From NCBI GenBank assembly GCA_003676145.1, contig NAUB01000021.1, positions 1 to 64,000 on the forward strand: a DNA stretch of 64,000 nucleotides, given 5' to 3'. A model generated the notes under the pieces. The model did not search any database. It saw nothing but the letters and a program-made list of their open reading frames with translations, and had not been told where the DNA came from. This DNA is from a gamma proteobacterium symbiont of Stewartia floridana. GTDB taxonomy: Bacteria; Pseudomonadota; Gammaproteobacteria; Chromatiales; Chromatiaceae. Every line of letters starts with the position of its first letter. Position 1 is the stretch's first letter. Position numbers and translations under genes: made by a program. Positions 27,243-47,943 of this stretch are shown piece after piece.

Positions 27243-27581
27243 GCCTCCATCATAAGTCTGAAAAATGTCTGGAAATTATCACAAGACCGACTGGGAAGCT
27301 GGAGCAGTGTGGAACTGTTTTTACAAATCCGATGTTCCTTGATTTTTACATGGCATTCTCAATTGGATTTTTCTCCCTGGATAGCTAATCTTTAGCTTAT
27401 ACAGATTGTACAACTTTATTATTTAATTATTGTGCATTTAATAGGGTTTCCTTAACAAAACTTTAGAGAGCGATGCTTGCGGCTCTCTTGTTTATGGCCC
27501 TGAGGTGTAACCACTTCAAAAGGTTGATTTACATCACCAGCGGGCGGTGGAGAGGCGTTACGGATTTAATGGTTATCTGTC
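27243..27581. other. Promoter region of the rnfG-like gene
   Basis: No gene seen. It is A+T-rich in its middle (about 27340-27460). It contains an FNR-like site TTGAT-TTAC-ATCAC at 27524-27537 (nine of ten consensus bases), whose centre is 51 bases before the next start codon. Confidence 0.5.
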
Positions 27582-34735: not shown

Positions 34736-35191
34736 TCAATGCTGTTCTGAGAGTTGATTCTGCAACCTCTCAATCTCTTGTTGGGCTTGCTCAAGCTTAA
34801 GCTCTATTTCGACCTCCCGGGTAACATCCTTTTGTACACCAATATAGTAAGTCAGGCCATCTTCTTCATTGATGATCGGGGTGATGCTCAACTCATTCCA
34901 AAAAAGCGAACCATCTTTATGGTAATTCCGTAACCTTGTTCGTGAAGGCTGATTGGTCTCTATGGCCTCACGAATCGACTGGCGGGCCTGTTGGTCTCGA
35001 TCGTCGCCCTGAAGGAAGCGGCAATCCTGGTAGAGAATCTCCTCTTCTTCATATCCGGTGAGTCTTTCAAATGCCTCGTTGACATAGAGAAGAATGGTGT
35101 CATCACCCTCACGCTCCGCGATCACCAAGCCATCATTCGCAGTATCTATAGCTTGCTTGAGCAGTTGCAAACTGATTGGTAAATGCTTCAT
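34736..35191 (-). CDS. Short LOV blue-light photoreceptor
   Basis: A 151-residue protein consisting of one LOV (PAS) domain plus a C-terminal coiled-coil helix (about 125-150). The photoactive Cys57 sits in YQDCRFLQG, a sequence identical in form to Pseudomonas SB1/SB2-LOV. The flavin-contact residues Arg58, Gln61, Asn89 (RNYHKDG), Asn99 (FWNELSI) and Gln120 (IGVQKDVT) are all present, so FMN binding and adduct formation are expected. In Pseudomonas putida such short LOV proteins act on a class II LitR regulator in light; a matching regulator lies at 46309-47235. A perfect inverted repeat stands 43 bases upstream. Confidence 0.93.
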   Translation of the reverse strand: MKHLPISLQLLKQAIDTANDGLVIAEREGDDTILLYVNEAFERLTGYEEEEILYQDCRFLQGDDRDQQARQSIREAIETNQPSRTRLRNYHKDGSLFWNELSITPIINEEDGLTYYIGVQKDVTREVEIELKLEQAQQEIERLQNQLSEQH

Positions 35192-35557
35192 GTCGTTCTA
35201 TTCCAACAGTCTTGTGCTTTCTGGTTTTCAAGCCTGTATCAGTATGATACAGCGCTCTTTACATCTGATTCTACGACAACCATTGGGTTGATAGAAGGGG
35301 TGTCACAAGATACTGGGGAATAATTTGCCCAAAATCAAGATGTGGTTATTGCTCTTGTGTGGATAATCGGGTTGTTCTCTGTACTATCTGTGCTTCCGGC
35401 AAACCCACAATGCTCATGTAGCAACAGAGGCCAGCTGGGGTGGGTGATTTGGTCTTGCAGAACCTGGGTCAATTTCTCTTTCTGTTACGAGTCATGCCGG
35501 AATCCCGGACCGCCCAGTTTGGATTCCGACATAACCGAATAATTTCGGGTAAATCAA
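35192..35557. other. Upstream region of the LOV gene
   Basis: 366 bases without a convincing gene; a 66-codon ORF at 35342 lacks a ribosome site. It holds the inverted repeat at 35234-35252. The rest shows nothing I can assign. Confidence 0.5.
35234..35252. promoter_or_regulatory. Perfect inverted repeat upstream of the LOV gene
   Basis: CTGTATCA-GTA-TGATACAG has perfect 8-base arms with a 3-base spacer, 43-61 bases before the LOV start codon. This is typical of a dimeric regulator's operator overlapping a promoter. It shares TGTAT/ATACA elements with the sites near 41365-41383. Confidence 0.55.
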
Positions 35558-36130
35558 TCAGGTTTGACCTAACAAGCTAATTTTTAAGGATTTATCAATA
35601 GGGTCCTTACCCAGCCAGATGTTCAGATAGGCCTTGGCGAGTAGAGGATCATTGAGTGTGATGACCTCTGAATCATTAAACTCCAATATCAGTCGATCGT
35701 CATCCTTCAAGGTCAAAGCGTATCGGTCACCCGGTTTTACATCCTGCATCGCATCGTGCAGTTGATCCAGGGCAGGACGCATTCGCTCAAGTTTCTCAGG
35801 CCCTTGCTGTTTGCGGATGAATGATTCTGCCACCTGCTTGATCTTACTTGCCTTAATCGGTATCAGGTAGTGAATCACCAGTCTCTGATCCTCTCGCTTC
35901 TCCTGTTGAGACGTATAGAGAGCGGCCGCATACAGATCGACCAGGATTCCCCAGGTCAATATTCCGGCACCTGAGAGTTCGAGCTGGTGGCTCTCAAAAG
36001 TGTGGTTCTGCGGAAAGTAGATATCCTTGATCTGGATACCTTGATTTGCATTGGCAACACCAGCGATGCTCAATAGGGATATCATTAGAGTGTATAGTGC
36101 GACTGACTTTGCTTTATTACGTTGAATCAT
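35558..36130 (-). CDS. Chalcone isomerase-like secreted protein
   Basis: A 190-residue protein with a signal peptide (1-29, ending VANANQG) and a chalcone-isomerase-like fold (Chalcone_3 type). It shows the GAGILTWGILVDLYAAALYT strand-helix start and a helix with IRKQQGPEKLERMRPALDQL. Bacterial members are periplasmic and are not known to make flavonoids; binding of a fatty acid-like ligand is likely. It is the last gene of the cfa operon, four bases after the DUF3833 lipoprotein gene. Homologues recur in LitR-linked clusters. Confidence 0.88.
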   Translation of the reverse strand: MIQRNKAKSVALYTLMISLLSIAGVANANQGIQIKDIYFPQNHTFESHQLELSGAGILTWGILVDLYAAALYTSQQEKREDQRLVIHYLIPIKASKIKQVAESFIRKQQGPEKLERMRPALDQLHDAMQDVKPGDRYALTLKDDDRLILEFNDSEVITLNDPLLAKAYLNIWLGKDPIDKSLKISLLGQT

Positions 36131-36133
36131 GAT

Positions 36134-36664
36134 TTACTCCTTTCTGAAAAAGAGAATGACTTCGCCAAGTTTGAAACCTAATTTTGTTACTACCGCTTTG
36201 TTCACCATCGTGTTTTGGTCGAGCAGAAACATCCAGTCATTGAAGTGCACACGCCAATCACTGCCACCAATTGTCAAGTCCATCTGATACTGCCACTGGA
36301 GTGCGCTGCCATAAGTTTCACCATGAGCGGTGCCGATGATGTCATTGGCGCTGCCGGTATACTGGTGTTTGTCGATACGTGTTATCAACCAGGTACGCTG
36401 TTCAGTGGTTCCATCATCGTAGTTAAACCACTCATCAAGTTTTAACTGGTCATTTTCTATCGTGCCGACAATGGTGACTTGAAACCGTTTTCGAAGCTTC
36501 CCGAAACGATCGATAAAAACTCCCCAGGCCTGCTGCTCACCCTCGAAAAACTCAAATAGATCGAATTCAGGAGCAGTGTTGGCGTAGTCAACCGGTTTCA
36601 TGTTTGAACAACCCAGGGTTATCAGTAACATAAGGCCTGCCAGCCAGGTTTTCTTCAGATTCAT
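36134..36664 (-). CDS. DUF3833 family lipoprotein
   Basis: A 176-residue lipoprotein. The start at 36664 (MNLKKTWLAGLML) gives a lipoprotein signal with lipobox ITLGC, and AGGAGCGAAAC is upstream; longer in-frame starts to 36739 would hide the signal. The body is the DUF3833 lipocalin-like barrel (FDLFEFFEGEQQAWGVFIDRFGKLRKRF). It overlaps the end of the upstream MFS gene by 77 bases in another frame, a long overlap. DUF3833 genes are commonly linked to cfa and DUF1365 genes; the function is unknown, perhaps handling of modified lipids. Confidence 0.88.
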   Translation of the reverse strand: MNLKKTWLAGLMLLITLGCSNMKPVDYANTAPEFDLFEFFEGEQQAWGVFIDRFGKLRKRFQVTIVGTIENDQLKLDEWFNYDDGTTEQRTWLITRIDKHQYTGSANDIIGTAHGETYGSALQWQYQMDLTIGGSDWRVHFNDWMFLLDQNTMVNKAVVTKLGFKLGEVILFFRKE

Positions 36665-37952
36665 CGCCTGTTTCGCTCCTCTGTATGATCGAGAGTTGAC
36701 GGCTGTCCAATGGAAAATGCCAAACCAGCCAAGCGGCAAAAACTTTGAATGGTATCGGTAGAAGTCCGTAGGCCAAGGCCAGGACCGTTATGCCGCTTGT
36801 TGAGGGTAGGGCAGGATCAAACCCACTCAGTTGTACCAATGGATAGACGAGTCCAATCGCCAGAGCCAGTGAGAGTTTGGTTGCCATTCCCCACAAACCG
36901 AAAAAAAGACCTGCCCGTTCACCGCCTCCACCAGCCCGGTCGATATCGATCACATCGGCCTGTATGGCGGCTGGTATTGACATGTCAATGCCCAAACTGA
37001 GTCCGGTTAACAGGCAGATCAATGCAAAAAGGTAGAAATCGCCGGGTGCCAGCCAGGGTACCCAAATAAAAACTGAACAGGAGAACAGCATGGCAACAGA
37101 CCAGGCGATGTGTTTCTGCACCCGCTTGGCGAGTGGTAACCAAATCAATAGTCCTAATACGCCGGATGCGAAGTAGATACCAAGCAACAACCAACGGCTT
37201 TCGTCCACCTGAAGGACATGCTCCACATAGAGTAAGAAAAGTGACGCCGGTATCGCATTGGCAATTCCATTCAACAGATAGGCAACCAGTAGTTTTTTTA
37301 ACGGTTTGTTGTTCGCAAGGAGATTGTAACCTTCCGAGAATCCGGTTCGTCTCATGGTTGATGTCAAGTCTGGAACCAACATCAGACCTGGCATGGAGAG
37401 TATGAATAAGGTGATGAAAACCAGACCGATCAATGCGAGTATCTCGCTATCCTTCAAGGTATTGAGTAGAAAAGGCAAGGATACGACCGTAATTGTTCCT
37501 GCAAGAACATAGATCTCCCGTACCGATGTGATTTGTGATCTTCGATAGTAATCGGTTGAGAGTTCTGCTCCCCATGCGTTGTAGGGTATGACCACCCACG
37601 ACCAACCGGTATAGAGTAGCGCTGACCAAACCAGCAAATAGAGCCCGCCAGGAGTGGTGTTGGGAATGAACAGCATGTAGCACGAAACCAGCAGCAATGG
37701 GGCGCCGCTGTAGATCATCAAGCGTCTGCGTCCCGGTTTGGTAAGAATTCTGTCACCGAGATATCCGGCGATCGGATCTGAAAAAAGATCCCAGAAGCGG
37801 GACATCATAAGCAGTAGACCAACTGCGGTCAGCCCAAGGCCGAACTCTTCTGCATAGATTGGTGGTAGAAATACAACCAGAGGCAAGCCGAGGAATGCCA
37901 ATGGCAAACCAGGTAGGCCATACAGGTATATTTGCTTGCCTCTGAAGTTCAT
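36588..37952 (-). CDS. MFS transporter, GPH/MelB-like
   Basis: A 454-residue inner-membrane transporter with about twelve spans. The motif MSRFWDLFSDPIAGYLGDRI matches the cation-coupled glycoside-pentoside-hexuronide (MelB-like) family. GPH-like proteins of this type occur inside cfa/DUF1365 clusters and may move lipid precursors rather than sugars; that is inference. It starts four bases after the cfa stop, and its 3' end overlaps the DUF3833 gene by 77 bases, so all are translated from one message. Confidence 0.9.
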   Translation of the reverse strand: MNFRGKQIYLYGLPGLPLAFLGLPLVVFLPPIYAEEFGLGLTAVGLLLMMSRFWDLFSDPIAGYLGDRILTKPGRRRLMIYSGAPLLLVSCYMLFIPNTTPGGLYLLVWSALLYTGWSWVVIPYNAWGAELSTDYYRRSQITSVREIYVLAGTITVVSLPFLLNTLKDSEILALIGLVFITLFILSMPGLMLVPDLTSTMRRTGFSEGYNLLANNKPLKKLLVAYLLNGIANAIPASLFLLYVEHVLQVDESRWLLLGIYFASGVLGLLIWLPLAKRVQKHIAWSVAMLFSCSVFIWVPWLAPGDFYLFALICLLTGLSLGIDMSIPAAIQADVIDIDRAGGGGERAGLFFGLWGMATKLSLALAIGLVYPLVQLSGFDPALPSTSGITVLALAYGLLPIPFKVFAAWLVWHFPLDSRQLSIIQRSETGDESEENLAGRPYVTDNPGLFKHETG

Positions 37953-37956
37953 CTCA

Positions 37957-39171
37957 CTAGCTGGCTTTGCGTAACAGAATCTGATGCAGGTTCAAGCGCT
38001 TGATCAGAAAGCCTGCTTCACAGTAGCTCAGGTAGTATTGCCACATTCTGATGAATTGTGGATCAAAACCCTGACTGAGCACCTGCTCTTTAACCTGATT
38101 AAAATTGAACTGCCACTTTTCCAGGGTTTTCGCATAGTCGAGTCCAAAAGAGTCATTTTCCACCAGTTTGAACCCGTGTCTCTCCGCAAGCGATTCTAAA
38201 CGCGAGACCGGTGGTAACATGCCGCCTGGAAAGATGTAGCGTTGGATAAAATCTGGCTTCTTCCGGTAACTGGCGTAAGCCTCTTCATCGATGGTAATGA
38301 CTTGTAAGGCAGCCGTTCCTTGGGTCTTCAGGAGCGTATTGAGTTTGCCAAAGTATTCATCCCAGTAAGCTTCACCAACTGCTTCGAACATTTCGATCGA
38401 TACGATATGATCATATTGCCCACTCAGATCACGATAGTCAGTCAGCTTCAGCTCGACTGATTCATCCAGGCCCTGATGTTGGATTCGATGATTGGCCCAT
38501 TCAAGTTGGGATGGTGATAGGCTGACACCGTCTACATTGAGCTGATTTGTCGCTGCCATTTCGGCGAACCCACCCCAGCCACAACCAATCTCCAGCACAG
38601 AGGCTCCAACTTGAGGTTGTATAAGATCCAGTATCCTTTGGTATTTTCGCTGTTGTGCCTGTTCAAGTGAGTCGTGTTCACTGTCAAACAGGCCACAGGA
38701 GTAGGTCATGCCCGCATCAAGCCAGAGCTTGTAGAAATCATTGCCCAGGTCGTAGTGCGCCTCAATATTCCTGCTGCTTCCCTCGCGGGTATTACGGTTT
38801 GACCAGTGATGGATCCGGTTTGCCAGATTTGAAAGTCGTGAGGCCCTGCGCAGGCGGGTGAAACGGTGTCGGTTTTCACCCAGTAGTACCAGCAGCGCGG
38901 TGAGATCTGGAGTATCCCACTCTTCAGCCATATAGGATTCGGCAAAACCTATGTCCCCTTTGCCGTAGATTCGCTTGATAAATGCAGCAAAACTCCGAAT
39001 ATTGATTCGAGCCGTATTGCCAGGGACTCTGCCATTCAAAATAAACAGACGTCCATTGGTTTGAATTTCCAATGTTCCCTGCTCGAGGCAGTCCAGTCGA
39101 CTGAGGAAATCTTCGAGTACGCCTTTGTAGAGATTGAAGCGTTCTAAGCTTTGAGTCTGTAGTGTGCTCAT
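37957..39171 (-). CDS. cfa: Cyclopropane-fatty-acyl-phospholipid synthase family methyltransferase
   Basis: SAM-dependent enzyme adding a methylene across the double bond of membrane unsaturated fatty acids. The 404-residue protein has the SAM motif VLEIGCGWGGFAE, the MTYSCGLFDSEHDSLEQAQQRKY segment typical of Cfa, and the IQRYIFPGGMLPP signature. It overlaps the DUF1365 gene by four bases and is followed by an MFS gene. In Rhodobacter and Pseudomonas, cfa homologues in such clusters respond to singlet oxygen or light. A furan or methylated fatty acid product is also possible. Confidence 0.94.
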   Translation of the reverse strand: MSTLQTQSLERFNLYKGVLEDFLSRLDCLEQGTLEIQTNGRLFILNGRVPGNTARINIRSFAAFIKRIYGKGDIGFAESYMAEEWDTPDLTALLVLLGENRHRFTRLRRASRLSNLANRIHHWSNRNTREGSSRNIEAHYDLGNDFYKLWLDAGMTYSCGLFDSEHDSLEQAQQRKYQRILDLIQPQVGASVLEIGCGWGGFAEMAATNQLNVDGVSLSPSQLEWANHRIQHQGLDESVELKLTDYRDLSGQYDHIVSIEMFEAVGEAYWDEYFGKLNTLLKTQGTAALQVITIDEEAYASYRKKPDFIQRYIFPGGMLPPVSRLESLAERHGFKLVENDSFGLDYAKTLEKWQFNFNQVKEQVLSQGFDPQFIRMWQYYLSYCEAGFLIKRLNLHQILLRKAS

Positions 39172-39950
39172 GTGGATATTTGCTCCTTAGGCGGTTTGGG
39201 CTTTGGGAAAAACTGAGCTCCACGAAGCCAAATCTTCAATGCCTGCCAATGGATGGCAAACATTACTTTAAAGGTCATCAGTGGGGTTCGAATCAACGCA
39301 TACAGCAATCGACTGTCTTTAAGGGGGTATGAGTAGCCAGCCTGACTTGCGGTGAGCATCAAGCGTTCATCTTGATATTCACGAATCACCACACCAAGTC
39401 GTTTACCAGGTTTGTGAAAAGCAAAATGGTATTCTCCATTCATGCCTATCAGAGGGGATACATGGAATTGTTTCTGTTTTACGGCACTCACCGGCCAGCT
39501 CAGACTCTCTCCATGATTGTGAATCAGATAAAAATGGTGCTCTTTGAAGGTATTGTTCACTTCACAAATCAGCGCTTTCAAACTGCCGTCTTTGTGGTAG
39601 CAGTACCAGATGGAGATCGGATTGAATGCATAACCCAATATGCGTGGAAAGCAGAGCAGTTTAATCGAACCATCCCCGATTTCGATATTCTGGGAAGAGA
39701 GCAGTTGAGTTGCCCAGCTCTTTAAACAGCTGCCGTCTCTCGGTCCATGATCCTTGCGGTTAAAGGAGAGCAGATTGAAGCGGTCGATTGAGAAGAGCGA
39801 CAGACTCCGACTCTCCGCTTCTATTCGATCCAGGTCGAACAGCAGACTGAATACCGGGTATGAAAAACGGTAATCCACAGGAAAGAACCGTTGATGCATC
39901 ACTTGGGTCAGGTAGATTTTACTCTGCTGGTCAGACATCGGTTCAGACAC
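39168..39950 (-). CDS. DUF1365 family protein
   Basis: A 260-residue protein of unknown biochemical role that is nearly always encoded between an FAD amine-oxidase-like gene and cfa. Recognisable stretches are VMHQRFFPVDYRFSYPVFSLLFDLD near the N-terminus, FPRILGYAFNPISIWYCY, and NTFKEHHFY. There is no signal peptide. It overlaps both neighbours (8 bases with the oxidoreductase, 4 with cfa), so it is translationally coupled. It probably takes part in fatty-acid modification with them. Confidence 0.92.
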   Translation of the reverse strand: MSEPMSDQQSKIYLTQVMHQRFFPVDYRFSYPVFSLLFDLDRIEAESRSLSLFSIDRFNLLSFNRKDHGPRDGSCLKSWATQLLSSQNIEIGDGSIKLLCFPRILGYAFNPISIWYCYHKDGSLKALICEVNNTFKEHHFYLIHNHGESLSWPVSAVKQKQFHVSPLIGMNGEYHFAFHKPGKRLGVVIREYQDERLMLTASQAGYSYPLKDSRLLYALIRTPLMTFKVMFAIHWQALKIWLRGAQFFPKPKPPKEQIST

Positions 39951-41295
39951 CCACGCTTCTGGCCAAAGATGCCAACTGATCCATGTCAGGTTGCAGCGTG
40001 GTTACCTCTGACTGTTTCGACCATGGCACCTGAACCCCAAGGCTGGCTGCAACTTGTACCGAGGAGCTTAAGGCATCTTCATGAAAACCGTAGCCAAAGT
40101 AACTGCCGCAGTACCAGATTTTCTGTTTTCCCTGAATCTCGGCCAACTGTTGTTGTGCCCACATGGCACCACTATCGAAGACAGGATGTTGATAGACCAT
40201 CTTCTCGATCAGGTGATCTTCCTGAGGAGATTGAAGCGGATTCAATGAGACAAAATAGTCCTTTTCTGCATTCAGTCGTTGCAGTCGGTTCATCCAGTAG
40301 CTGACAGATACTGCCCGCTGTTGCGTTTTCAGGTCATCCTCAGCGATATAGTTCCAGGAGGACCAGACATCACGTAGTCTGGGCATCAATGCGCTATCGG
40401 TGTGTAGATAGACGGTGTTGTCCTGGTATCTGAATCTACCCAGCAATTCGGCTTCGAGCGGGTTAGGGTTCTCAAGCAGGGAAATGGCCTGGTCCGCGTG
40501 GCTGGCGATAATCAGTGCGTCATAAGTCTCCTTATGGCCCGATTCAGTGGTGATTTCCACACCATCGGTTGTACGCCTTACCGATGCGACGGATTGGTTG
40601 GTTTTAACACGGCTACCCAATGCACCGGCCATGACCTTTACATACTGCCAGCTGCCCCCAACCAGGGTTTTCCATTGCGGACGATTCTTGATTCTGACCA
40701 AACCATGGTTTCTGAAAAACTGAGCGAAGCTGTTGAATGGAAATGAGAGCATCGTATTGGTCGGGCATGACCAGATCGCCGCTGCCATTGGCAGCAGGTA
40801 GTTATAACGGAACTGATGGTTGTAACCATGCAGATCGAGAAAATCACCAAGACTGATATTGTAGTCATCTTGATGAGTGTGGTTCTGACACTGCTTATTG
40901 AAACGTAGGATGTCCTTAATCATGGACAAAAATTGAAAATTAATCAGATTTTGTCTCTGGGCAAACAATTTCTTCAGATTGTCACCGGCGTACTCTAGCG
41001 AGCCGGAATCGATCGAAACGGCAAACGACATATCGGTGTTTTGGGTTTCTACCTGAAGGTGATCCAGCAATTTTGTCAGCAGTGGGTAGTTGGGTTCGTT
41101 ATAGACGATGAACCCCGTGTCGATCGGAATCCTGTCGTTACCCTCCTGGACCTCGATGGTATGTGTATGGCCACCCACATAATCGTTTTGTTCGTACAGA
41201 TCCACCTGATATCTGTTTTTAAGCAGCCAGGCCGCACTCAAGCCTGCGATACCGCTTCCGACAATCCCGATTCGTTTTATCTCGTTTTGTTTCAC
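39943..41295 (-). CDS. FAD-dependent amine-oxidase-like oxidoreductase
   Basis: A 450-residue flavoprotein beginning at a GTG (41295). The N-terminal Rossmann motif is GIVGSGIAGLSAAWLL and then YEQNDYVGGHTHT, as in the NAD(P)/FAD-binding amine oxidase family. It is the first gene of the six-gene operon down to 35558. Orthologues in Rhodobacter, Pseudomonas and Vibrio lie in stress or light-induced clusters with DUF1365 and cfa, where they are thought to oxidise modified acyl chains. The promoter region contains TACA repeats. Confidence 0.93.
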   Translation of the reverse strand: MKQNEIKRIGIVGSGIAGLSAAWLLKNRYQVDLYEQNDYVGGHTHTIEVQEGNDRIPIDTGFIVYNEPNYPLLTKLLDHLQVETQNTDMSFAVSIDSGSLEYAGDNLKKLFAQRQNLINFQFLSMIKDILRFNKQCQNHTHQDDYNISLGDFLDLHGYNHQFRYNYLLPMAAAIWSCPTNTMLSFPFNSFAQFFRNHGLVRIKNRPQWKTLVGGSWQYVKVMAGALGSRVKTNQSVASVRRTTDGVEITTESGHKETYDALIIASHADQAISLLENPNPLEAELLGRFRYQDNTVYLHTDSALMPRLRDVWSSWNYIAEDDLKTQQRAVSVSYWMNRLQRLNAEKDYFVSLNPLQSPQEDHLIEKMVYQHPVFDSGAMWAQQQLAEIQGKQKIWYCGSYFGYGFHEDALSSSVQVAASLGVQVPWSKQSEVTTLQPDMDQLASLARSVGV

Positions 41296-41329
41296 AGTAA
41301 ATACCTGCAGATCGATTTACAGGTAATAT

Positions 41330-41349
41330 TTGTACAAAATTGTACAAAA
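41330..41349. promoter_or_regulatory. Tandem TTGTACAAAA repeats in the divergent promoter
   Basis: Two perfect consecutive copies of TTGTACAAAA (41330-41339 and 41340-41349). Each fits nTnTACAn, the unit bound by CarH/LitR-type MerR regulators. A TATAAT at 41356-41361 could be the -10 of the plus-strand SDR gene, 20 bases after the first TTGTAC. Confidence 0.6.
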
Positions 41350-41364
41350 AACAACTATAATATT

Positions 41365-41383
41365 TATACAATGACATTGTATA
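41365..41383. promoter_or_regulatory. TATACAATG-A-CATTGTATA palindrome
   Basis: Perfect 9-base arms around one central base. The outer TATACA units match the TnTACA element of the tandem repeats 16 bases away. It lies 109 bases before the SDR start and downstream of the possible -10, so it would be a good repressor site. Confidence 0.6.
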
Positions 41384-41491
41384 TTTTAGGTTTATTAAGC
41401 TTCAAAGCGAATAAATCTATTAAAAACAATGTGATGTAGCTAATACGCAAATAAAGATGAGTCTGGCAAATTGATACAAAAGGTATAATTT

Positions 41492-42268
41492 ATGGTGCAT
41501 CCCAGGAATGATGAACAGAATAGATCCCCGGTAGCCTGGATCACCGGAGGCGGCAGTGGTATCGGTAGATCGCTGGCTCACGAGTTGAGTGACATGGGTT
41601 GGACTGTAGTGATTTCAGGGCGTAATCGGGAGAAGTTGAGCAGAACCGCAGAAGCCGTTGATAGACACACGATTCGGCAGATTGCGCTGGATGTGACTGA
41701 TGCGCAATCCGTCAACGATGTGATTGGCGAGATCGAGCGAGAGTATGGAAGCGTAGATTATGCATTTTTGAATGCAGGTGATTACTCACCAATGAGATTG
41801 AGTGATTTCGACCCGGAGCTGTTTCGCAGGCTTAACAACGTCAACTACCTCGGCGTGGTCAACTGTATCGCGGCGCTGATACCGGGTATGAGGCAACGAG
41901 CCCAGGGTCAGATTCTGATAACAGCCAGTCTATCCGGGTATTGTGGATTGCCAGGTGCTGCTCCCTACAGTGCCACTAAGGCGGCATTGATCAATCTGGC
42001 CGAGTCTTTACAGCCGGAACTGTTACAGTTGGGAATTCGTATCCGCTTGATCAATCCCGGTTTTGTGGCAACAGATCTCACAGATAAGAATGATTTCAAG
42101 ATGCCGTTTTTGATTACCCCGACAATGGCTGCCAAAGCGATTAAAGATCAGCTTATGTCAAAGCGTTTTGAAATCCGCTTTCCGACCATATTTTCATGGA
42201 TAATGAGATTACTCAGTTGGATGCCATACAGAGTCTATTTTGCACTGACGCGGAGATTGCTGAAATGA
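41492..42268 (+). CDS. Short-chain dehydrogenase/reductase
   Basis: A 258-residue classical SDR. The cofactor loop is TGGGSGIG, NAG follows, and the catalytic Ser and Tyr-x3-Lys appear in TASLSGYCGLPGAAPYSATKAAL. The C-terminal 20 residues are hydrophobic and basic, as in membrane-associated SDRs (MRLLSWMPYRVYFALTRRLLK). It is divergent from the FAD oxidoreductase operon and shares its TACA-repeat promoter. It overlaps the next gene by four bases. SDR plus NTF2-like pairs accompany LitR/cfa clusters in other proteobacteria. Confidence 0.93.
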   Translation: MVHPRNDEQNRSPVAWITGGGSGIGRSLAHELSDMGWTVVISGRNREKLSRTAEAVDRHTIRQIALDVTDAQSVNDVIGEIEREYGSVDYAFLNAGDYSPMRLSDFDPELFRRLNNVNYLGVVNCIAALIPGMRQRAQGQILITASLSGYCGLPGAAPYSATKAALINLAESLQPELLQLGIRIRLINPGFVATDLTDKNDFKMPFLITPTMAAKAIKDQLMSKRFEIRFPTIFSWIMRLLSWMPYRVYFALTRRLLK

Positions 42269-42702
42269 GTAACATAGGAGAGTGGTTGTCTCGCTACAGT
42301 GATTTTTTCGAATCGCTGGACAAAACGAAACTTGAGCAGTTTGATCAAGTGTTCAACCAGCAGATTCGTTTCAAGGATCCATTTAATGATGTTGTCGGCA
42401 TCGAATCGGTAAAACAGGTGTTCAGACATATGTTCAGAGTGTGTGAAACCTGTCAGTTTGAAGTGAGCGACAGTTGCGGCAGTGGCGATCAGGGCTATCT
42501 ACACTGGAAGTTTCTTTATCGCGCGAAGGGTAGTAGCGAAAGCCGAACGATCATCGGTATCAGTCAGGTTCGATTCAATCCTCAGGGTGAGGTGATCGAA
42601 CATATCGACTATTGGGATTCCGCTGAATATGTCTACGAAAAACTGCCGTTGCTTGGTGGCGTGCTAAGCTGGATTCGCAAGCGCTACCTGCAGGCGGCTT
42701 AG
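42265..42702 (+). CDS. NTF2/SnoaL-like protein
   Basis: A 145-residue single-domain protein of the nuclear transport factor 2-like fold (FNQQIRFKDPFNDVVGIESVKQVFRHMF, then HIDYWDSAEYVYEKLPLLGGVLSWIRKR). The ATG at 42265 overlaps the SDR stop (ATGA), so I prefer it to the longer in-frame ORF starting at 42196. Members of this kind sit beside the SDR in the light/singlet-oxygen clusters; the function is unknown, and a ligand-binding or isomerase role is possible. No signal peptide. Confidence 0.9.
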   Translation: MSNIGEWLSRYSDFFESLDKTKLEQFDQVFNQQIRFKDPFNDVVGIESVKQVFRHMFRVCETCQFEVSDSCGSGDQGYLHWKFLYRAKGSSESRTIIGISQVRFNPQGEVIEHIDYWDSAEYVYEKLPLLGGVLSWIRKRYLQAA

Positions 42703-42793
42703 AGGCGAGGGGGATTGACGTTTATAGTTTTTACAAATCGAACTAGACTTGGGACAGTTCCAACAATAATTCTGAAGACCAGTGGGGCGGCCA

Positions 42794-43297
42794 ATGCACC
42801 AATCAAGAGTTTCCATGCTACAGGGTATGCCGATCTTTGGCGGTGTCAGTGAGAAGACCTTGGATCTGTTAATCAACAAGGCCTCCATTATCGAGGTTGA
42901 AAAAGATCAATATTTTTTTCAGGAGGGAGACCTGGATAACTCGATCTATATACTGGAGCAGGGGCGGGTGGCCGTTTACAGAACCTGGCAGGAGCGGCTC
43001 TATATGCTCAGAAGCCTGGAAACCGGTGACTGTTTTGGCGAAATGGCTTTGATGGATTGCAAGCCACGCAGTGCAGCAGTTCAGGCCCTGGAGGATTGTC
43101 AGGCAATTCAGATCAAGGCGGCGCAATTGGCAGAACTCTACGGTATTGATCACGAGCAGTATCTGATGATTTATATGAATCTTGGTCGCGAGGTCTGTCG
43201 ACGCTTAAGTGAGGCGGATCAGCGTCTGTTCATCAACCGTTTTTCACTTGATGCGGGTGACCAGAGCCAAACCGATCAGGCCCAGTGCCATCAATAG
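42794..43297 (+). CDS. Stand-alone cyclic-nucleotide-binding domain protein
   Basis: A 167-residue protein with only a cNMP-binding barrel (about 15-125) and a C-terminal helix, and no HTH. The phosphate-binding cassette GDCFGEMALMDCKPRSAAVQAL retains the Glu and Arg used to bind cAMP/cGMP, so ligand binding is plausible. The ATG at 42794 is preferred to a GTG at 42782. It may be a second-messenger sensor acting by protein contact. It follows the NTF2-like gene by 91 bases, and its last 54 bases overlap the convergent small membrane protein gene. Confidence 0.88.
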   Translation: MHQSRVSMLQGMPIFGGVSEKTLDLLINKASIIEVEKDQYFFQEGDLDNSIYILEQGRVAVYRTWQERLYMLRSLETGDCFGEMALMDCKPRSAAVQALEDCQAIQIKAAQLAELYGIDHEQYLMIYMNLGREVCRRLSEADQRLFINRFSLDAGDQSQTDQAQCHQ

Positions 43298-43567
43298 TAG
43301 GGAGAGGGGCTGGAGCAACTGATTGTTACTCTCGTCCCGAAACAGGGTCATACAGCTGCTTTTCATCTGATAGGGGTTTGCACAAGGGTTTGTCCCTTCG
43401 TTCATCAGAAAGATTGTCTCGAACAGAGTCAGAGAGAGGCTCTGTTCAGCCCCTGGGCTGGCGCGTTGAGATGTAATATCCATGGGCAATAATGCAGGAT
43501 GCTCCGCAAGAATATCAGTAGAGCTGATAAACACGATCAATGGCAGTAAGATCAAAAAGCGCTTCAT
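43244..43567 (-). CDS. Small secreted or membrane protein with C-terminal anchor
   Basis: About 107 residues from the ATG at 43567 (MKRFLILLPLIVF). It has a signal peptide, a short extracytoplasmic part with two Cys, and a C-terminal hydrophobic segment QPLSLLLMALGLIGLALVTRIK. This resembles the transmembrane half of PEP-CTERM-type sorting tails but lacks the PEP motif. Its 3' end overlaps the convergent cNMP gene by 54 bases. No family is recognised, so a chance ORF is not excluded, but the two matched hydrophobic ends favour a real gene. Confidence 0.5.
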   Translation of the reverse strand: MKRFLILLPLIVFISSTDILAEHPALLPMDITSQRASPGAEQSLSLTLFETIFLMNEGTNPCANPYQMKSSCMTLFRDESNNQLLQPLSLLLMALGLIGLALVTRIK

Positions 43568-43868
43568 AGGAAACTGCTTGGCAGTGAGTAAGACTCTGAT
43601 TTGATTGCCCCCAGTAACATTGTGCAATTACAATGCCATTAAAATAATTCTCTTGTAATCAATTGCCTGAGTTATAAACAACCAGCACATACTTAGGCTG
43701 TGTAAAGTATCCCGACGTTTTCGATCTTCACTGGTTACCCGGTCTGATAGTGGAAAGGCTCTGGAGAGGCATCAAGCCATTTGCTTCCGGTGATTCCGGG
43801 ATAAGCAGAATTGATCGATTTATTCAGATATCGAGTGTTTGGCGTTATTGAAATCCCTATGCGGGAGG

Positions 43869-44834
43869 CTAAATCAAATTACGCAGACCAAGTTTCTCGG
43901 GATGGGGTTGCAGATAGATCTGTCTCGACATGTAGTCGTCCGGGTGGAGTCGGAAGTAGTGTTTCAACAATGTCATCGGCACCACTAAGGGGGTTTCCGT
44001 GCGTCGATAGGCCTCAATACAGGAGACAAGTTCACTCTTGTCGTCGGTGTCGATGCGTTTTTTCAAGTAGCCCATAATATGTTGCAACACATTGACATGA
44101 CGGCTACGGGTGACCCGGCGTTTGAGTGTCTGCATCAAGGCCTCAATGTAGGTGGCTGCGATCAGATCCAGGTCCTCGTCGGCGAGATTTGAGAGCAGTC
44201 GTCCCAGCCTCTGGTAAGCAGCTTGAGAGTGTGCCATTACCAGGTACTTGTGGTTGGTGTGGAAGTCGATCAGTTTTGCGGCAGTGAAACCTTGCCGTCG
44301 AAGCAGCTGCCAGCGGTGGTATACATAGATGCGGTTGATGAAGTTCTCCCGCAGTACCGGATCGTTGAGTCGGCCCTCTTCTTCCACCGGAAGTTGAGGA
44401 AGTTTTTCCATTAACAGCTGAGCAAAGATGCCACTGCCTTTTCGCTGCGCATGGGTTCCCTGTTCGGAATAAACCTTAACCCGAGACATGCCACAGCTGG
44501 GGGAGTCCTTTTTCAGGATATAGCCGCTCAAATGGTCCAGCCGCTCGGTCTGCTGCAGGGTATATGCCTGCATCTGCTTGGTAAAATCCTGGCTTGGATC
44601 CGCAACCCCGACCAGGCGGGGGCTGTCTGGATCACCGATCAGTCTGATCGTAGGGCGAGGCACGCCCAGGCCAATGCCGGTCTCCGGACAGAGTGGATGA
44701 TACTCGACATATTCCTGAAGTGTCTCGGCAATGAAACGATCCCGTTTGTGGCCTCCGTCATATCGCACCTGGTGTCCCAGCAGGCAGGCACTGAGTCCGA
44801 TGATCGGTTTTGTTGTATCGAATTGGTTCATCAC
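43869..44834 (-). CDS. DUF523 and DUF1722 domain protein (YbgA-like)
   Basis: A 321-residue protein with an N-terminal DUF523 domain (GLSACLLGHQVRYDGGHKR, CPETGIGLGVPR, LKKDSPSCGM, with conserved cysteines suggesting an Fe-S site) and a C-terminal DUF1722 (YbgA) domain (LIDFHTNHKYLVMAHSQAAYQRLGRLL). In many bacteria this gene is adjacent to photolyase, as here, where its start overlaps the phrB stop by four bases. TudS-like DUF523 proteins desulfurate thiouracil, so a role in handling modified or damaged pyrimidines is possible. Confidence 0.93.
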   Translation of the reverse strand: MMNQFDTTKPIIGLSACLLGHQVRYDGGHKRDRFIAETLQEYVEYHPLCPETGIGLGVPRPTIRLIGDPDSPRLVGVADPSQDFTKQMQAYTLQQTERLDHLSGYILKKDSPSCGMSRVKVYSEQGTHAQRKGSGIFAQLLMEKLPQLPVEEEGRLNDPVLRENFINRIYVYHRWQLLRRQGFTAAKLIDFHTNHKYLVMAHSQAAYQRLGRLLSNLADEDLDLIAATYIEALMQTLKRRVTRSRHVNVLQHIMGYLKKRIDTDDKSELVSCIEAYRRTETPLVVPMTLLKHYFRLHPDDYMSRQIYLQPHPEKLGLRNLI

Positions 44835-46306
44835 TTGCTACCCGCGGTGTTGGATCGACGCTTGACACTCTCCCAACGTTGCAGCGCCTCTCTTCTTGAG
44901 CTCTGTAAGTCGACAATGGGTTCGGGATAGGTTTTGCCTAGCTGCACACCCGCTTTGAACAGTTCGCTTGTTTTTGCCATCCAGGGGGCATACAGGCTCT
45001 TGCTGGGCAACGTGGACAATTCCGGCAGCCAACGCTTGATGTAGTTTCCGTTGGGGTCGAACCGTTCTGCCTGTCTCACCGGATTGAAAATACGGAAATA
45101 GGGTGCCGCATCTGCACCGCAGCCGGCACTCCACTGCCAACCCAGGCTGTTATTTGCCAGGTCCGCATCAACCAGCGTATCCCAAAACCAGCGGGCCCCA
45201 TCCAACCAGTGAATGCCCATGTTTTTAGTCAGCAGGGAGGCAACGATCATGCGCACCCGGTTGTGCATCCAGCCGGTTTGCCACAGTTCCCGCATACCCG
45301 CATCTACAATGGGTATGCCGGTCTCTCCCCGTTGCCATTTTTGCAGCAGGTTTTTGGCTTGCTTGTCTGACCGCCAAGGGTAGTCTGCAAACCGGGAGTC
45401 GAAGGGCAATCGGTCAGTGTCGGGGTTGTTTGCCAATAGATCGATGGCAAATTCACGCCAGGCCAATTGGCGCAGATATTGGCTGGCTCCCTCATTGTCG
45501 GTGTATGCCGGTGTGCCACCAATTCGGGCCGACAAGCCGTTGGCTATCTGTACCGGGCTGATCTCGCCAAAATGAAGATGAGCAGATAGACGGGATGTAT
45601 CGGAAAGGTCAGGCCTGTCTCTGCCGGTATGGTAATCATTGACCGTCTGTTGCATGAAGTCATGCAGCTTTTTAAAGGCGCCCGCTTCACCGGGCTGCCA
45701 GTGATTGTGAAACTCCCGGTACCAGGGGTTGCTTGGCAGCAGTTTCAGGCTGTCTATCTCCAGCGAATCAATCTCGTCGGGCAGCGGAGGCAGGGATTTT
45801 GGTGCTGGTTCCGTCGACCTTTGCAACATGCCCTGTTTTTGTAGCGCACGCCAGAAGGGGGTAAACACCCGGTAGCTGCCGCCATCGATTCGTCGGATCG
45901 AGTTACCACCCAACAGCTGATAGGAGTGAAACTGATGACAGCTGACACCCGCTTTGGTCAGTTCACGGCAGACCCGGCTATCCCGTTGTATCAACGCAGG
46001 TTCGGGCAGACAGGTAAAAAACAGATGTTGGCATTGATGTTTGATAGCCAGCTTGCGTAACACCAGACGACTCGATCCTTTGGCGATGATCAAGCCGGAT
46101 CCCAGCTTGCGCAGATCCCTATCCAGTGCGATCAGGCTGTTGTGCAGCCACCAGTTGGATGCTGCACCAGGCTGCCAGGGTTGTTCCTCCTCTGGCGCAT
46201 GGATGTAGACTGGTAGAAGATAATTCGCATCACGGATGGCGGCCAGCAGGGCCGGGTGGTCGGTCAACCTCAGATCCCTTCTTAACCAGAGGATCGACCG
46301 GGTCAT
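44831..46306 (-). CDS. phrB: Deoxyribodipyrimidine photolyase
   Basis: Flavin enzyme using blue or near-UV light to split cyclobutane pyrimidine dimers. The 491-residue class I photolyase has the antenna-binding N-terminal Rossmann domain (SILWLRRDLRLTDHPAL) and the FAD-binding helical domain with the WAREFAIDLL-like and NRVRMIVASLLTKNMGIHWLDGARWFWDTLVDADLANN signature. The Trp electron-transfer region is present (NSLGWQWSAGCG). It lies two bases after the MerR-type regulator and is coupled to the DUF523 gene, so all three form one operon, as in LitR-controlled loci. Confidence 0.97.
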   Translation of the reverse strand: MTRSILWLRRDLRLTDHPALLAAIRDANYLLPVYIHAPEEEQPWQPGAASNWWLHNSLIALDRDLRKLGSGLIIAKGSSRLVLRKLAIKHQCQHLFFTCLPEPALIQRDSRVCRELTKAGVSCHQFHSYQLLGGNSIRRIDGGSYRVFTPFWRALQKQGMLQRSTEPAPKSLPPLPDEIDSLEIDSLKLLPSNPWYREFHNHWQPGEAGAFKKLHDFMQQTVNDYHTGRDRPDLSDTSRLSAHLHFGEISPVQIANGLSARIGGTPAYTDNEGASQYLRQLAWREFAIDLLANNPDTDRLPFDSRFADYPWRSDKQAKNLLQKWQRGETGIPIVDAGMRELWQTGWMHNRVRMIVASLLTKNMGIHWLDGARWFWDTLVDADLANNSLGWQWSAGCGADAAPYFRIFNPVRQAERFDPNGNYIKRWLPELSTLPSKSLYAPWMAKTSELFKAGVQLGKTYPEPIVDLQSSRREALQRWESVKRRSNTAGSK

Positions 46307-46308
46307 GA

Positions 46309-47235
46309 TCAGTGGCCTATCATCAATCTGTCATCGATTTGAACCACAGCCGCAGCCAAATCCACTGCCAGTGGTATTGCGCCCGCTTGTAATATCTCCG
46401 CTTGATGGGTCTGTGTGATTGATCCGCCGACAAATACCGGCTCATTCACTTTTTGCACCAAAGCAGGCAGATGACTCTGCAACAGAGCCACTGGAGGTTC
46501 CAAGCTGCCGAACAGGACCAAGGCTTCACTGTGGGCGCGGTTGATTGTCATCGGCAGGTATTCCAAGCTCAAATCCGGTCCCAACAAAACGGGCCTGTAT
46601 CCCTGAGTCATCGCTTTCAGGCTGAACAGAAGAAGTTCAACTTCACTGTATTCATTCGGCAGACAGGCACCCAGCAGTCGCCTACCGCGGGCTTGTGCGG
46701 ACTGGTGATGAAAGCGCGCGCCGAGTTTGTTGCGCAGGTAGGTATGAAAGAAGCGGCTTTCCACTTCTGCCAAAGGCTGACTGCTTCGCCTTTGCTGCAA
46801 CTCGTGAAGCATGGGTTGCAGTAGCAGACGGGTTACCAGTTCGATTGGGTAGAGGGAGAGCGCCTCATTGTAGCTGCCGTCGAGGGCGTTTTCATCGAAT
46901 TCTGCGATCGCCTGAAGCATTCTGCTGCGATAGGTTTTCCAGACATCACTCTCTTCAGCCTGGGGTGAATCCACGGCTTGCAGTAACGTACCATCGTCAG
47001 AGAGCCGGTTCTTGACCTGGCCGATCGAGATACCCTGATCGATAAAATCCATGATCTGTCGGATCAGATGGATATGATCGTCGGTATAGAGCCTGTGTCC
47101 TTTCGGGGTTCTCTCCGGTTTTATCAGACCATAGCGTCTCTCCCAGGCGCGCAGCGTTACGGGATTGATGCCGGTCAGTTCGGAGACCTTTCGAATCGGA
47201 TAAAAACCGTTTTTGTAAGAGGGTTGTTCTTTCAT
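46309..47235 (-). CDS. MerR-family regulator, class II LitR-like
   Basis: A 308-residue regulator. The N-terminal MerR winged helix (11-79) has YPIRKVSELTGINPVTLRAWERRYGL and PKGHRLY, as in CarA/CarH/LitR. The C-terminal part retains a helical bundle and Rossmann-like B12-binding fold. However, the axial-ligand motif ExHxxG of CarH reads NEYSEVE (194-200), with Ser where His should be, and the bundle EH pair is ES (159-160). Cobalamin sensing is therefore unlikely, as in class II LitR of Pseudomonas putida, which is instead controlled by a short LOV protein. Photolyase follows two bases downstream; TACA sites precede it. Confidence 0.88.
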   Translation of the reverse strand: MKEQPSYKNGFYPIRKVSELTGINPVTLRAWERRYGLIKPERTPKGHRLYTDDHIHLIRQIMDFIDQGISIGQVKNRLSDDGTLLQAVDSPQAEESDVWKTYRSRMLQAIAEFDENALDGSYNEALSLYPIELVTRLLLQPMLHELQQRRSSQPLAEVESRFFHTYLRNKLGARFHHQSAQARGRRLLGACLPNEYSEVELLLFSLKAMTQGYRPVLLGPDLSLEYLPMTINRAHSEALVLFGSLEPPVALLQSHLPALVQKVNEPVFVGGSITQTHQAEILQAGAIPLAVDLAAAVVQIDDRLMIGH

Positions 47236-47553
47236 GAACCTGTTTGAAATGTTAAAACTTATACATAGTGTACAATAATTTTTAGAGATTTGTACGTTAA
47301 GAATTACCCTGGGATTGAGTGGCTTTTATTGCCTGGCAGAGTGCATTGGGTTGGTCTTGACAGGCTTCAGGCAATTCTCCTTAGACTGGCTGAGTAATTC
47401 TTTTTAATCAGTGTGTTATGGAGATACAAAAGGAAAGCATTTGGATCGATTGACTATTCTGCTTGAGGCAGGGTATCAATTCTGTTTTATTTGCCGACTC
47501 AATCGTTCGGATTGATATCCACTGTTTGGCTTAATTATCGGGTATCGGAGATC
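47236..47553. other. Divergent promoter region of the LitR-like and globin genes
   Basis: 318 bases with no gene. Next to the regulator it has the TACA units at 47260-47296. Closer to the globin gene nothing clear is seen. Confidence 0.5.
47260..47296. promoter_or_regulatory. TACA-type boxes upstream of the LitR-like gene
   Basis: TATACA (47260-47265), TGTACA (47269-47274) and TTGTACG (47290-47296). They resemble the tandem units at 41330-41383 and lie 25-61 bases before the regulator's start, so self-control is likely. Confidence 0.5.
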
Positions 47554-47943
47554 ATGCAACCAGCAGCAACACATTATGAAAGAGTGGGCGGCGAAAAATC
47601 GGTACGTGAACTGGTCGATCGCTTCTATGACCTGATGGATGAGCAGGACGATCTCACCGAATTACGTCAGTTGCATGCCAAGAGCCTCAAGGTCTCTCGA
47701 GAGAAGTTATTCATGTTTCTCTCTGGCTGGTTGGGCGGCCCATCGCTGTATACTGACAAGTATGGTCATCCAAGACTCAGAGCGCGCCATCTTCCCTTCA
47801 GTATCGGCATCGAAGAGCGGGACCAATGGATGCAATGTATGAAAACCGCCATGCAGCAGATGTCGATGGATGAGTCACTACAGCAGGAGTTGCTCCAGGC
47901 TTTTTTCAAAACCGCGGATTTTATGCGCAACCGGGAAGATTGA
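47554..47943 (+). CDS. Group II truncated haemoglobin
   Basis: A 129-residue 2-over-2 globin of the GlbO type, binding O2, NO or peroxide. His79 in ARHLPFSIG is the proximal haem ligand (F8), Trp92 matches the G8 Trp of group II, and Tyr25 is at B10. I prefer the ATG at 47554 (MQPAATHYERVGG), since the upstream in-frame ORF to 47491 reads through non-conserved sequence. It is divergent from the LitR-like operon. Oxidative or nitrosative stress protection is the usual idea. Confidence 0.92.
   Translation: MQPAATHYERVGGEKSVRELVDRFYDLMDEQDDLTELRQLHAKSLKVSREKLFMFLSGWLGGPSLYTDKYGHPRLRARHLPFSIGIEERDQWMQCMKTAMQQMSMDESLQQELLQAFFKTADFMRNRED

What the first reader, a model, noticed from the sequence alone, without database searches (positions are those of the whole stretch)
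34736..47296. Candidate blue-light regulon linking LOV, LitR, photolyase and membrane lipid remodelling
Within 12.6 kb lie a short LOV receptor, a class II LitR-like repressor, photolyase, and the FAD-oxidoreductase/DUF1365/cfa/MFS/DUF3833/chalcone isomerase-like operon with a divergent SDR/NTF2 pair. Homologous gene sets are light-induced in Pseudomonas and singlet-oxygen-induced in Rhodobacter. Here sensor and regulator bracket the lipid operon, and an MFS transporter, a cNMP protein and a Cys-bearing anchored protein are added. Several enzymes (DUF1365, DUF3833, chalcone isomerase-like) have no known reaction, so the product lipid could be new.
Basis: inference. Interest (0 to 1): 0.75.

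Follow-up and report, generated by a model that had tools for sequence, protein, structure and literature searches.

The report
Blue-light switch for furan-lipid photoprotection genes
This gene cluster is most likely a blue-light switch, of a kind already worked out in Pseudomonas, that turns on DNA repair, tRNA de-thiolation and the making of protective furan fatty acids; its repressor lacks the vitamin B12 light-sensing site of its relatives and probably relies on a separate flavin light sensor instead.

Summary
Observation confirmed: every named gene is there, plus a missed rudS (43869-44834) and candidate operators. The blue-light reading is supported by homology but largely published: in Pseudomonas mendocina a lit short LOV protein takes a class II LitR repressor off TGTACA sites and frees a phrB-ufaM operon (PMC9758184). 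The lipid is probably not new: FAD-oxidoreductase, DUF1365 and the cfa-like enzyme resemble UfaD, UfaO and UfaM of the furan fatty acid pathway (PMC7380195).

New here: the window LitR has lost Trp, Glu, His of the Wx9EH site and His, Gly of ExHxxG. Among 84 LitR rows, a short-LOV orthologue (150 bits or more) is in 0 of 42 genomes with the B12 site intact and 33 of 42 with it lost. The lost rows form one clade (SH-aLRT 94), so this is one event, not repeated. TRTACA clusters lie upstream of LitR-linked genes in 51 of 80 loci, reversed hexamers in 1 of 80; gaps are mostly 11 bp in B12-type loci, 18 bp in Pseudomonas and Halomonas kin. The window has LOV within the cluster and fits neither spacing. 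Nothing was tested at the bench.

The parts
34736..35191 (-). Short LOV photoreceptor, no effector domain; photoactive Cys57 in DCRFLQGDDRDQ
   Evidence: no TRTACA hexamer in the 366 bp upstream
35558..36130 (-). Chalcone isomerase-like protein, role unknown
   Evidence: PF16036 8.1e-26
36134..36664 (-). DUF3833, probable lipoprotein, role unknown
   Evidence: PF12915 5.6e-62; start by inspection
36588..37952 (-). MFS_2 transporter, role unknown
   Evidence: PF13347 5.7e-61
37957..39171 (-). UfaM-type SAM methyltransferase (Ala264, Gln290 where cyclopropane synthases mostly have His)
39168..39950 (-). UfaO homologue (DUF1365)
   Evidence: PF07103 7.3e-81; no PDB match up to E = 1
39943..41295 (-). 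UfaD homologue (FAD amine oxidase family)
   Evidence: PF01593 1.9e-21
41331..41383 (.). Candidate LitR operator: TGTACA 41331, TGTACA 41341, TATACA 41365, TGTATA 41378, between ufaD and SDR
   Evidence: 25 of 5000 random resamples reach four
41492..42268 (+). SDR oxidoreductase, divergent from ufaD
   Evidence: PF00106 1.9e-45
42265..42702 (+). SnoaL/NTF2-like protein, start overlaps SDR stop
   Evidence: PF12680 5.6e-13
43869..44834 (-). RudS: TudS desulfidase + DUF1722 (tRNA 4-thiouridine removal)
   Evidence: PF04463 9.3e-41, PF08349 2.1e-42
44831..46306 (-). Photolyase
   Evidence: PF03441 3.3e-86; best PDB 4u63 2e-114
46309..47235 (-). Class II LitR-like repressor, B12 site lost, CarH-like fold
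47260..47296 (.). Candidate LitR operator before litR: TATACA 47260, TGTACA 47269, imperfect TGTACG 47291
   Evidence: 122 of 5000 random resamples reach two exact hexamers

Best explanation
In the dark LitR sits on clustered TRTACA sites in the ufaD/SDR divergent promoter and in its own promoter and represses ufaD-ufaO-ufaM-MFS-DUF3833-CHI, SDR-SnoaL and litR-phr-rudS. Blue light makes the flavin-Cys57 adduct in the short LOV protein; lit LOV binds LitR and frees the promoters. The genes then repair pyrimidine dimers (photolyase), remove near-UV-absorbing 4-thiouridine from tRNA (RudS) and turn monounsaturated chains of phospholipids into methylated furan fatty acids, a defence linked to singlet oxygen. 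Shown here by sequence: gene content, loss of the B12 site in LitR, hexamer clusters and their recurrence, and the tie across genomes between B12-site loss and a short LOV. Inferred from homology and papers: light response, LOV-LitR binding, operator use, enzyme reactions and product.
For: Short LOV with the reactive Cys, closest to Pseudomonas short LOVs and the only close one in its genome, 321 bits against 65 for the next. LitR models as a CarH fold without W, E, H of Wx9EH and without H, G of ExHxxG, as expected of a B12-independent class II LitR. LOV orthologue in 33 of 42 B12-lost and 0 of 42 B12-intact rows. Hexamer clusters upstream of LitR-linked genes in 51 of 80 loci against 1 of 80 for reversed hexamers, and in both window promoters. 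The P. mendocina system works this way in vitro. UfaM-type residues in 62 of 63 rows.
Against: The published N12 (18-bp) operator does not occur in the window promoters even with two mismatches, and the window gaps (10, 24, 13; 9, 22) fit neither the 11-bp nor the 18-bp pattern. The exact pair pattern is hardly enriched in the genome: 3 places against 2 for the reversed control, 4 against 1 for a longer form. Nine of 42 B12-lost rows lack a LOV of 150 bits. In P. mendocina a gel shift showed lit LOV in a complex still on DNA while BIAcore showed release. The genome also has RpoE-ChrR, which could drive the same genes. No expression or lipid data.
Confidence: 0.75

Rival explanations
1. The lipid and photolyase genes are driven mainly by RpoE-ChrR in answer to singlet oxygen, as in Rhodobacter, and LitR-LOV controls only litR-phr-rudS or little at all.
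For: The genome has an RpoE-ChrR pair on another contig. The core RpoE-ChrR regulon includes phrB, cfaS, RSP1087, 1088, 1090 and 1091 (PMC5507510 passages). In the family a UfaM relative is in 23 of 57 genomes but LitR in only 5 of 57, so something else often runs the operon. A recalled RpoE-like pattern occurs at 47530-47554(-), about 295 bp before litR.
Against: That pattern has 4 matches in the window against 2.25 expected, none before ufaD (consensus recalled, not looked up). Four TRTACA hexamers lie in the ufaD/SDR promoter. LitR neighbours ufaDOM in 39 of 80 LitR loci.
Confidence: 0.2
2. LitR is itself the photosensor, through B12 or an unknown chromophore, and the LOV protein serves another pathway.
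For: LOV lies 11 kb from litR and has no hexamer upstream. LitR keeps the CarH fold, the first Glu of ExHxxG and the GG motif. Nine B12-lost rows have no LOV of 150 bits. PMC11417400 calls these regulators adenosyl-B12-dependent, against PMC9758184.
Against: Trp, Glu and His of Wx9EH and the His ligand of the cobalt are gone. LOV orthologues are absent at 150 bits from all 42 B12-intact rows.
Confidence: 0.08
3. The methyltransferase makes cyclopropane fatty acids and the operon makes another, perhaps new, modified lipid.
For: The best solved relatives are cyclopropane synthases; MFS, DUF3833 and CHI have no known role.
Against: It is encoded with UfaD and UfaO homologues, as in relatives. It has Ala and Gln where cyclopropane synthases have His; 62 of 63 rows of its type share each change, while 6 of 7 weaker rows have His.
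Confidence: 0.12

Closest known systems
PmlR2/PmSB-LOV and the PmlR1 operon of Pseudomonas mendocina (PMC9758184); PplR1-3 of P. putida as cited there
   Same: Short LOV with reactive Cys; B12-independent class II LitR; targets phrB, SDR, FAD-oxidoreductase and ufaM; TGTACA-type sites.
   Different: Here LOV and LitR bracket the lipid operon, whereas in P. mendocina LOV is beside a second LitR (pmlR2) at another locus; operator gaps are not 18 bp; the lipid operon has its own divergent promoter; MFS, DUF3833 and CHI are included; the LitR is an early branch.
CarH / class I LitR (B12 photoreceptor repressors)
   Same: MerR HTH, four-helix bundle and Rossmann-like fold; related operators; B12-type LitRs of relatives sit by the same genes.
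   Different: B12-binding residues lost in the window.
UfaM-UfaD-UfaO furan fatty acid pathway of Rhodobacter sphaeroides and Rhodopseudomonas palustris (PMC7380195)
   Same: The three enzyme families in one run, as the R. palustris numbering RPA2571-2569 implies.
   Different: Under a LitR-type repressor rather than RpoE-ChrR; product not tested.
RudS with PhrB and LitR (PMC11417400)
   Same: TudS-DUF1722 gene beside phr and LitR.
   Different: No notable difference seen.

Membership tests
Short LOV of the PpSB/PmSB type | LOV core with reactive Cys, no effector domain | tested here: met
   151 aa, Cys57 in DCRFLQ, matches 5luv and 3sw1 over residues 6-136
Short LOV of the PpSB/PmSB type | FMN photocycle | not testable with these tools
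   Needs spectroscopy
Class II LitR | MerR HTH with CarH-like C-terminal part that lacks the B12 site | tested here: met
Class II LitR | Groups with Pseudomonas LitR rather than with B12-type LitR | tested here: inconclusive
   In one clade of 42 B12-lost rows when rooted (SH-aLRT 94, under the 95 mark), but on the branch next to the B12-type rows, with higher identity to them (up to 50%), and no bootstrap
Class II LitR | Binds TGTACA-N12-TGTACA | tested here: not met
   No match in the promoters at up to 2 mismatches; hexamers present at other gaps. Binding itself untested
CarH (class I LitR) | Intact Wx9EH and ExHxxG | tested here: not met
   R, S, R for W, E, H; S and E for H and G
LOV-LitR anti-repressor system | Light-dependent LOV-LitR binding that frees DNA | not testable with these tools
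   Needs biochemistry
UfaM/UfaD/UfaO pathway | Three enzyme families encoded together | tested here: met
UfaM/UfaD/UfaO pathway | Direct sequence match to the R. sphaeroides or R. palustris enzymes | not tested
   Those sequences were not obtained
UfaM/UfaD/UfaO pathway | Makes 9M5-furan fatty acid | not testable with these tools
   Needs lipid analysis
RudS | TudS fused to DUF1722 | tested here: met
   PF04463 and PF08349 in one 321-aa protein

The most novel reading that the evidence does not exclude
One photoprotection module (photolyase, RudS, furan-lipid operon) changed its light sensor once in Gammaproteobacteria: a B12-binding CarH-type LitR lost its chromophore site and came under a short LOV anti-repressor, after which operator spacing moved from CarH-like 11-bp repeats to 18 bp in Pseudomonas and Halomonas kin. 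The window is an early-branching form of the new state, with LOV still inside the cluster and irregular operators.
Probability: 0.55. Interest if true: 0.62.

Novelty: new variant of a known kind. Interest (0 to 1): 0.5.

Why it matters
It places the LOV-LitR switch, known from Pseudomonas, in a wider line of Gammaproteobacteria and gives a testable account of how a B12 light sensor was exchanged for a flavin one while target genes stayed. That bears on how sensory circuits are rewired and offers further parts for blue-light gene control. It also corrects the idea that the lipid product is unknown: a furan fatty acid is the expected output.

Tried and rejected
The published N12 operator was looked for and not found in the window promoters. 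The TGTACA pair pattern is hardly above its reversed control in the genome (3 against 2 places; longer form: 4 against 1), so I claim no genome-wide regulon. Many independent losses of the B12 site: tested and dropped, the trees need one change and there is one independent pair. RpoE control of ufaD through a recalled consensus: no site before ufaD. The cNMP and small Cys-bearing proteins: dropped as parts, no match in 80 loci at 1e-6 or in the fetched loci at 1e-3 apart from a window fragment. Sigma-70 and terminator scans: no more than shuffles (14 against 15.1; 10 against 10.9). The place C7:1738 with a TGTACA pair before an Rrf2 gene was left open; of its genes Rrf2 is in 1, DUF302 in 1 and DUF2189 in 0 of 80 LitR loci.

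Count rules and dropped rows. The 84 rows are the window, L036, L037, L038 and L052-L131; L039 was left out as the same locus as L088; L036 and L076 are one genome and both stayed in. The 80 loci are the best 80 of a capped list. LOV presence means 150 bits or more; at E 1e-25 4 B12-intact genomes (L056, L058, L060, L079) and 36 of 42 B12-lost rows also count, the three family genomes having been searched at 1e-30. Many genomes are drafts or MAGs, so absences are soft. The Fisher value treats related rows as independent, which they are not. Resamples are first-order Markov draws. Hexamer clusters are two or more hexamers at most 26 bp apart, within 300 bp upstream of a tblastn match start. One of 33 LOV rows (L151) could not be read at the motif. 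Rows include some from one genome.

Papers: PMC9758184 abstract, sections 3, 4 (parts 1 and 2 of 3) and 15; PMC7380195 abstract and passages; PMC11417400, PMC9304148, PMC11796333, PMC6047819, PMC3818230 and PMC5507510 passages only; PMC7515241 (P. putida) not held. That I know of no paper on the B12-to-LOV exchange in LitR rests only.

It split the Pseudomonas and Halomonas counts; the statement that every checked B12 residue was lost was mended (the first Glu of ExHxxG and the GG stay).
Full report
What is there. On the minus strand ufaD (FAD-oxidoreductase), ufaO (DUF1365), ufaM (cfa-like), MFS, DUF3833 and CHI form one tight run from 41295 down to 35558, with the short LOV gene after a gap of 366 bp. 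SDR and a SnoaL-like gene run the other way from 41492, and the SnoaL start overlaps the SDR stop. The genome is a 4.55-Mb draft of 36 contigs, 97% complete.

The sensor. The LOV protein matches Pseudomonas short LOVs best (5luv 1.8e-54, 3sw1 4.1e-53) and is the only close one in its genome, 321 bits against 65 for the next. At the places of PpSB1 Arg61 and Arg66 it has Arg and Arg; of 32 LOV rows readable there (33 in all) only the window has Arg at 66. PpSB1-R66I recovers in about 23 minutes by UV/vis (PMC6047819 passages) and PpSB1 in 109 minutes (as quoted in PMC9758184), so a slow LOV is expected. This is a weak inference across papers; PmSB-LOV is also slow and I did not see its residue at that place.

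The repressor. LitR has a MerR HTH and an AlphaFold2 model of pLDDT 91.7 whose first 12 Foldseek matches are Thermus CarH (TM about 0.5-0.6 over the whole chain; about 0.8 by target length for most of the isolated B12-domain chains). CarH binds AdoCbl through W131, E141, H142 and H177 (PMC11796333 passages), and an intact Wx9EH helps tell CarH from B12-independent CarA (PMC9304148 passages). In the window these places read R, S, R and S; the Gly of ExHxxG is Glu; the first Glu and the GG stay. Of 84 aligned rows, 42 keep both motifs and 42 do not. A LOV orthologue at 150 bits or more is in 0 of the first and 33 of the second (Fisher 3.6e-15 only if rows were independent). At the looser E of 1e-25 it is 4 of 39 named B12-intact genomes and 36 of 42 B12-lost rows. 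With two paralogues of the same genome that keep both motifs as outgroup, the lost rows are one clade nested among intact ones (SH-aLRT 94; several deeper forks are weak; L086 and L091 are long branches). With motif columns removed and no outgroup, the same split has 79. So the data fit one exchange, and there is a single independent pair. Lost rows without a LOV of 150 bits: L091, L098, L102, L107, L110, L113, L125, L126, L129.

Where the LOV gene lies. Only the window, Cocleimonas flava (L086) and an Oceanospirillales MAG (L099) have a LOV of 100 bits or more within the fetched LitR locus. In 13 of the 32 other LOV loci of 150 bits or more a second LitR-like match lies within the short flank, as with pmlR2 in P. 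mendocina; L170 is the L099 locus again.

The operators. PmlR2 protects two TGTACA-N12-TGTACA sites (PMC9758184). In the window 3 of 11 TGTACA words lie in the two promoters, with TATACA and TGTATA beside them: four hexamers between ufaD and SDR (25 of 5000 resamples reach this) and two before litR (122 of 5000). In the 80 relatives such hexamers cluster upstream of LitR-linked genes in 51 loci, reversed hexamers in 1. Gaps are 11 bp in 30 of 43 for B12-type loci, 11 bp in 6 of 16 for seven early B12-lost loci, 18 bp in 24 of 26 for Pseudomonas and 6 of 7 for Halomonas kin (only 7 of 19 Halomonas-kin loci have a cluster). Tandem 11-bp repeats are the CarH design (PMC9304148). The window gaps are 10, 24 and 13, and 9 and 22 (the last to an imperfect word), so it meets neither exactly. 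In 16 B12-lost loci with rudS, 58 hexamers lie upstream of it where 1.9 are expected.

A possible further target. The pair pattern is at three places in the genome and its reversed control at two. One is the ufaD promoter; another, C13:325877, lies between a methyltransferase-like gene (415 aa) and the run of an 85-aa and a 294-aa gene without Pfam family. Homologues of the 415-aa and 294-aa genes lie within the fetched LitR loci in 9 and 3 of 80, all with B12-type LitR. Suggestive, not shown.

The output. In R. sphaeroides UfaD and UfaO are needed to reach 9M5-furan fatty acid after UfaM; UfaO carries DUF1365, the oxygen comes from O2, and deletion of RSP1087, 1088 or 1089 had no detectable effect on fatty acids (PMC7380195 passages). 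RSP1090 and RSP1091 were both needed for singlet-oxygen defence (PMC3818230 passages). The window methyltransferase has Ala264 and Gln290 where solved cyclopropane synthases have His; 62 of 63 rows of its type share each change and 6 of 7 weaker rows have His. That one of these His binds bicarbonate in E. coli Cfa is recalled, not looked up. RudS removes 4-thiouridine from tRNA and is often found with photolyase and LitR (PMC11417400 passages).

The same targets under another sensor. L076 (the same genome as L036, in the window's family) has a LitR with the B12 site intact next to ufaD-ufaO-ufaM-MFS-DUF3833-CHI and no LOV match; the window and L086 have the B12-lost LitR, the LOV and the same lipid genes. 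In the family LitR at 1e-20 is in 5 of 57 genomes and a UfaM relative at 1e-60 in 23 of 57, so the lipid operon is often run otherwise, perhaps by RpoE-ChrR, which this genome also has.

Judgement. Observation confirmed; interpretation partly supported and largely published; the evolutionary setting is the new part. New variant of a known kind.

Noticed in passing
G000:C13:325877 (L173:1501-1525): A TGTACA-N13-TGTACA pair between a methyltransferase-like gene and genes without Pfam family whose homologues lie near LitR in other genomes.
   Followed up: partly
L098, L107, L113, L125, L126, L129 (Halomonas kin), L102 (Pseudomonas viridiflava): LitR without the B12 site but no short LOV of 150 bits found in the genome: draft gaps, or another sensor.
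   Followed up: no
window 37957-39171, residues 264 and 290: Ala and Gln in place of two His of cyclopropane synthases, shared by 62 of 63 ufa-type rows: a possible marker of furan-pathway methyltransferases.
   Followed up: partly
window 43244-43627 (-): Small ORF with signal-like start, two Cys and a C-terminal hydrophobic stretch ending TRIK, a bit like sorted surface proteins; no family, no homologue in the loci searched.
   Followed up: no
window 47491-47943 (+): Truncated haemoglobin gene (Bac_globin) divergent from litR, likely start ATG 47554; it may share the litR promoter region.
   Followed up: no
12 of 80 LitR loci, e.g. L056, L065, L077, L086: A glutathione-peroxidase-like gene lies within the LitR locus, often directly beside LitR.
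   Followed up: no
G000:C15:15592 (L002) and G000:C6:34091 (L003): Two further MerR proteins of this genome keep Wx9EH and ExHxxG, so B12-type regulators may act beside the LOV system.
   Followed up: no
window 27397-27413: TTATACAGATTGTACAA, a further match to the longer pair pattern, outside the finding.
   Followed up: no
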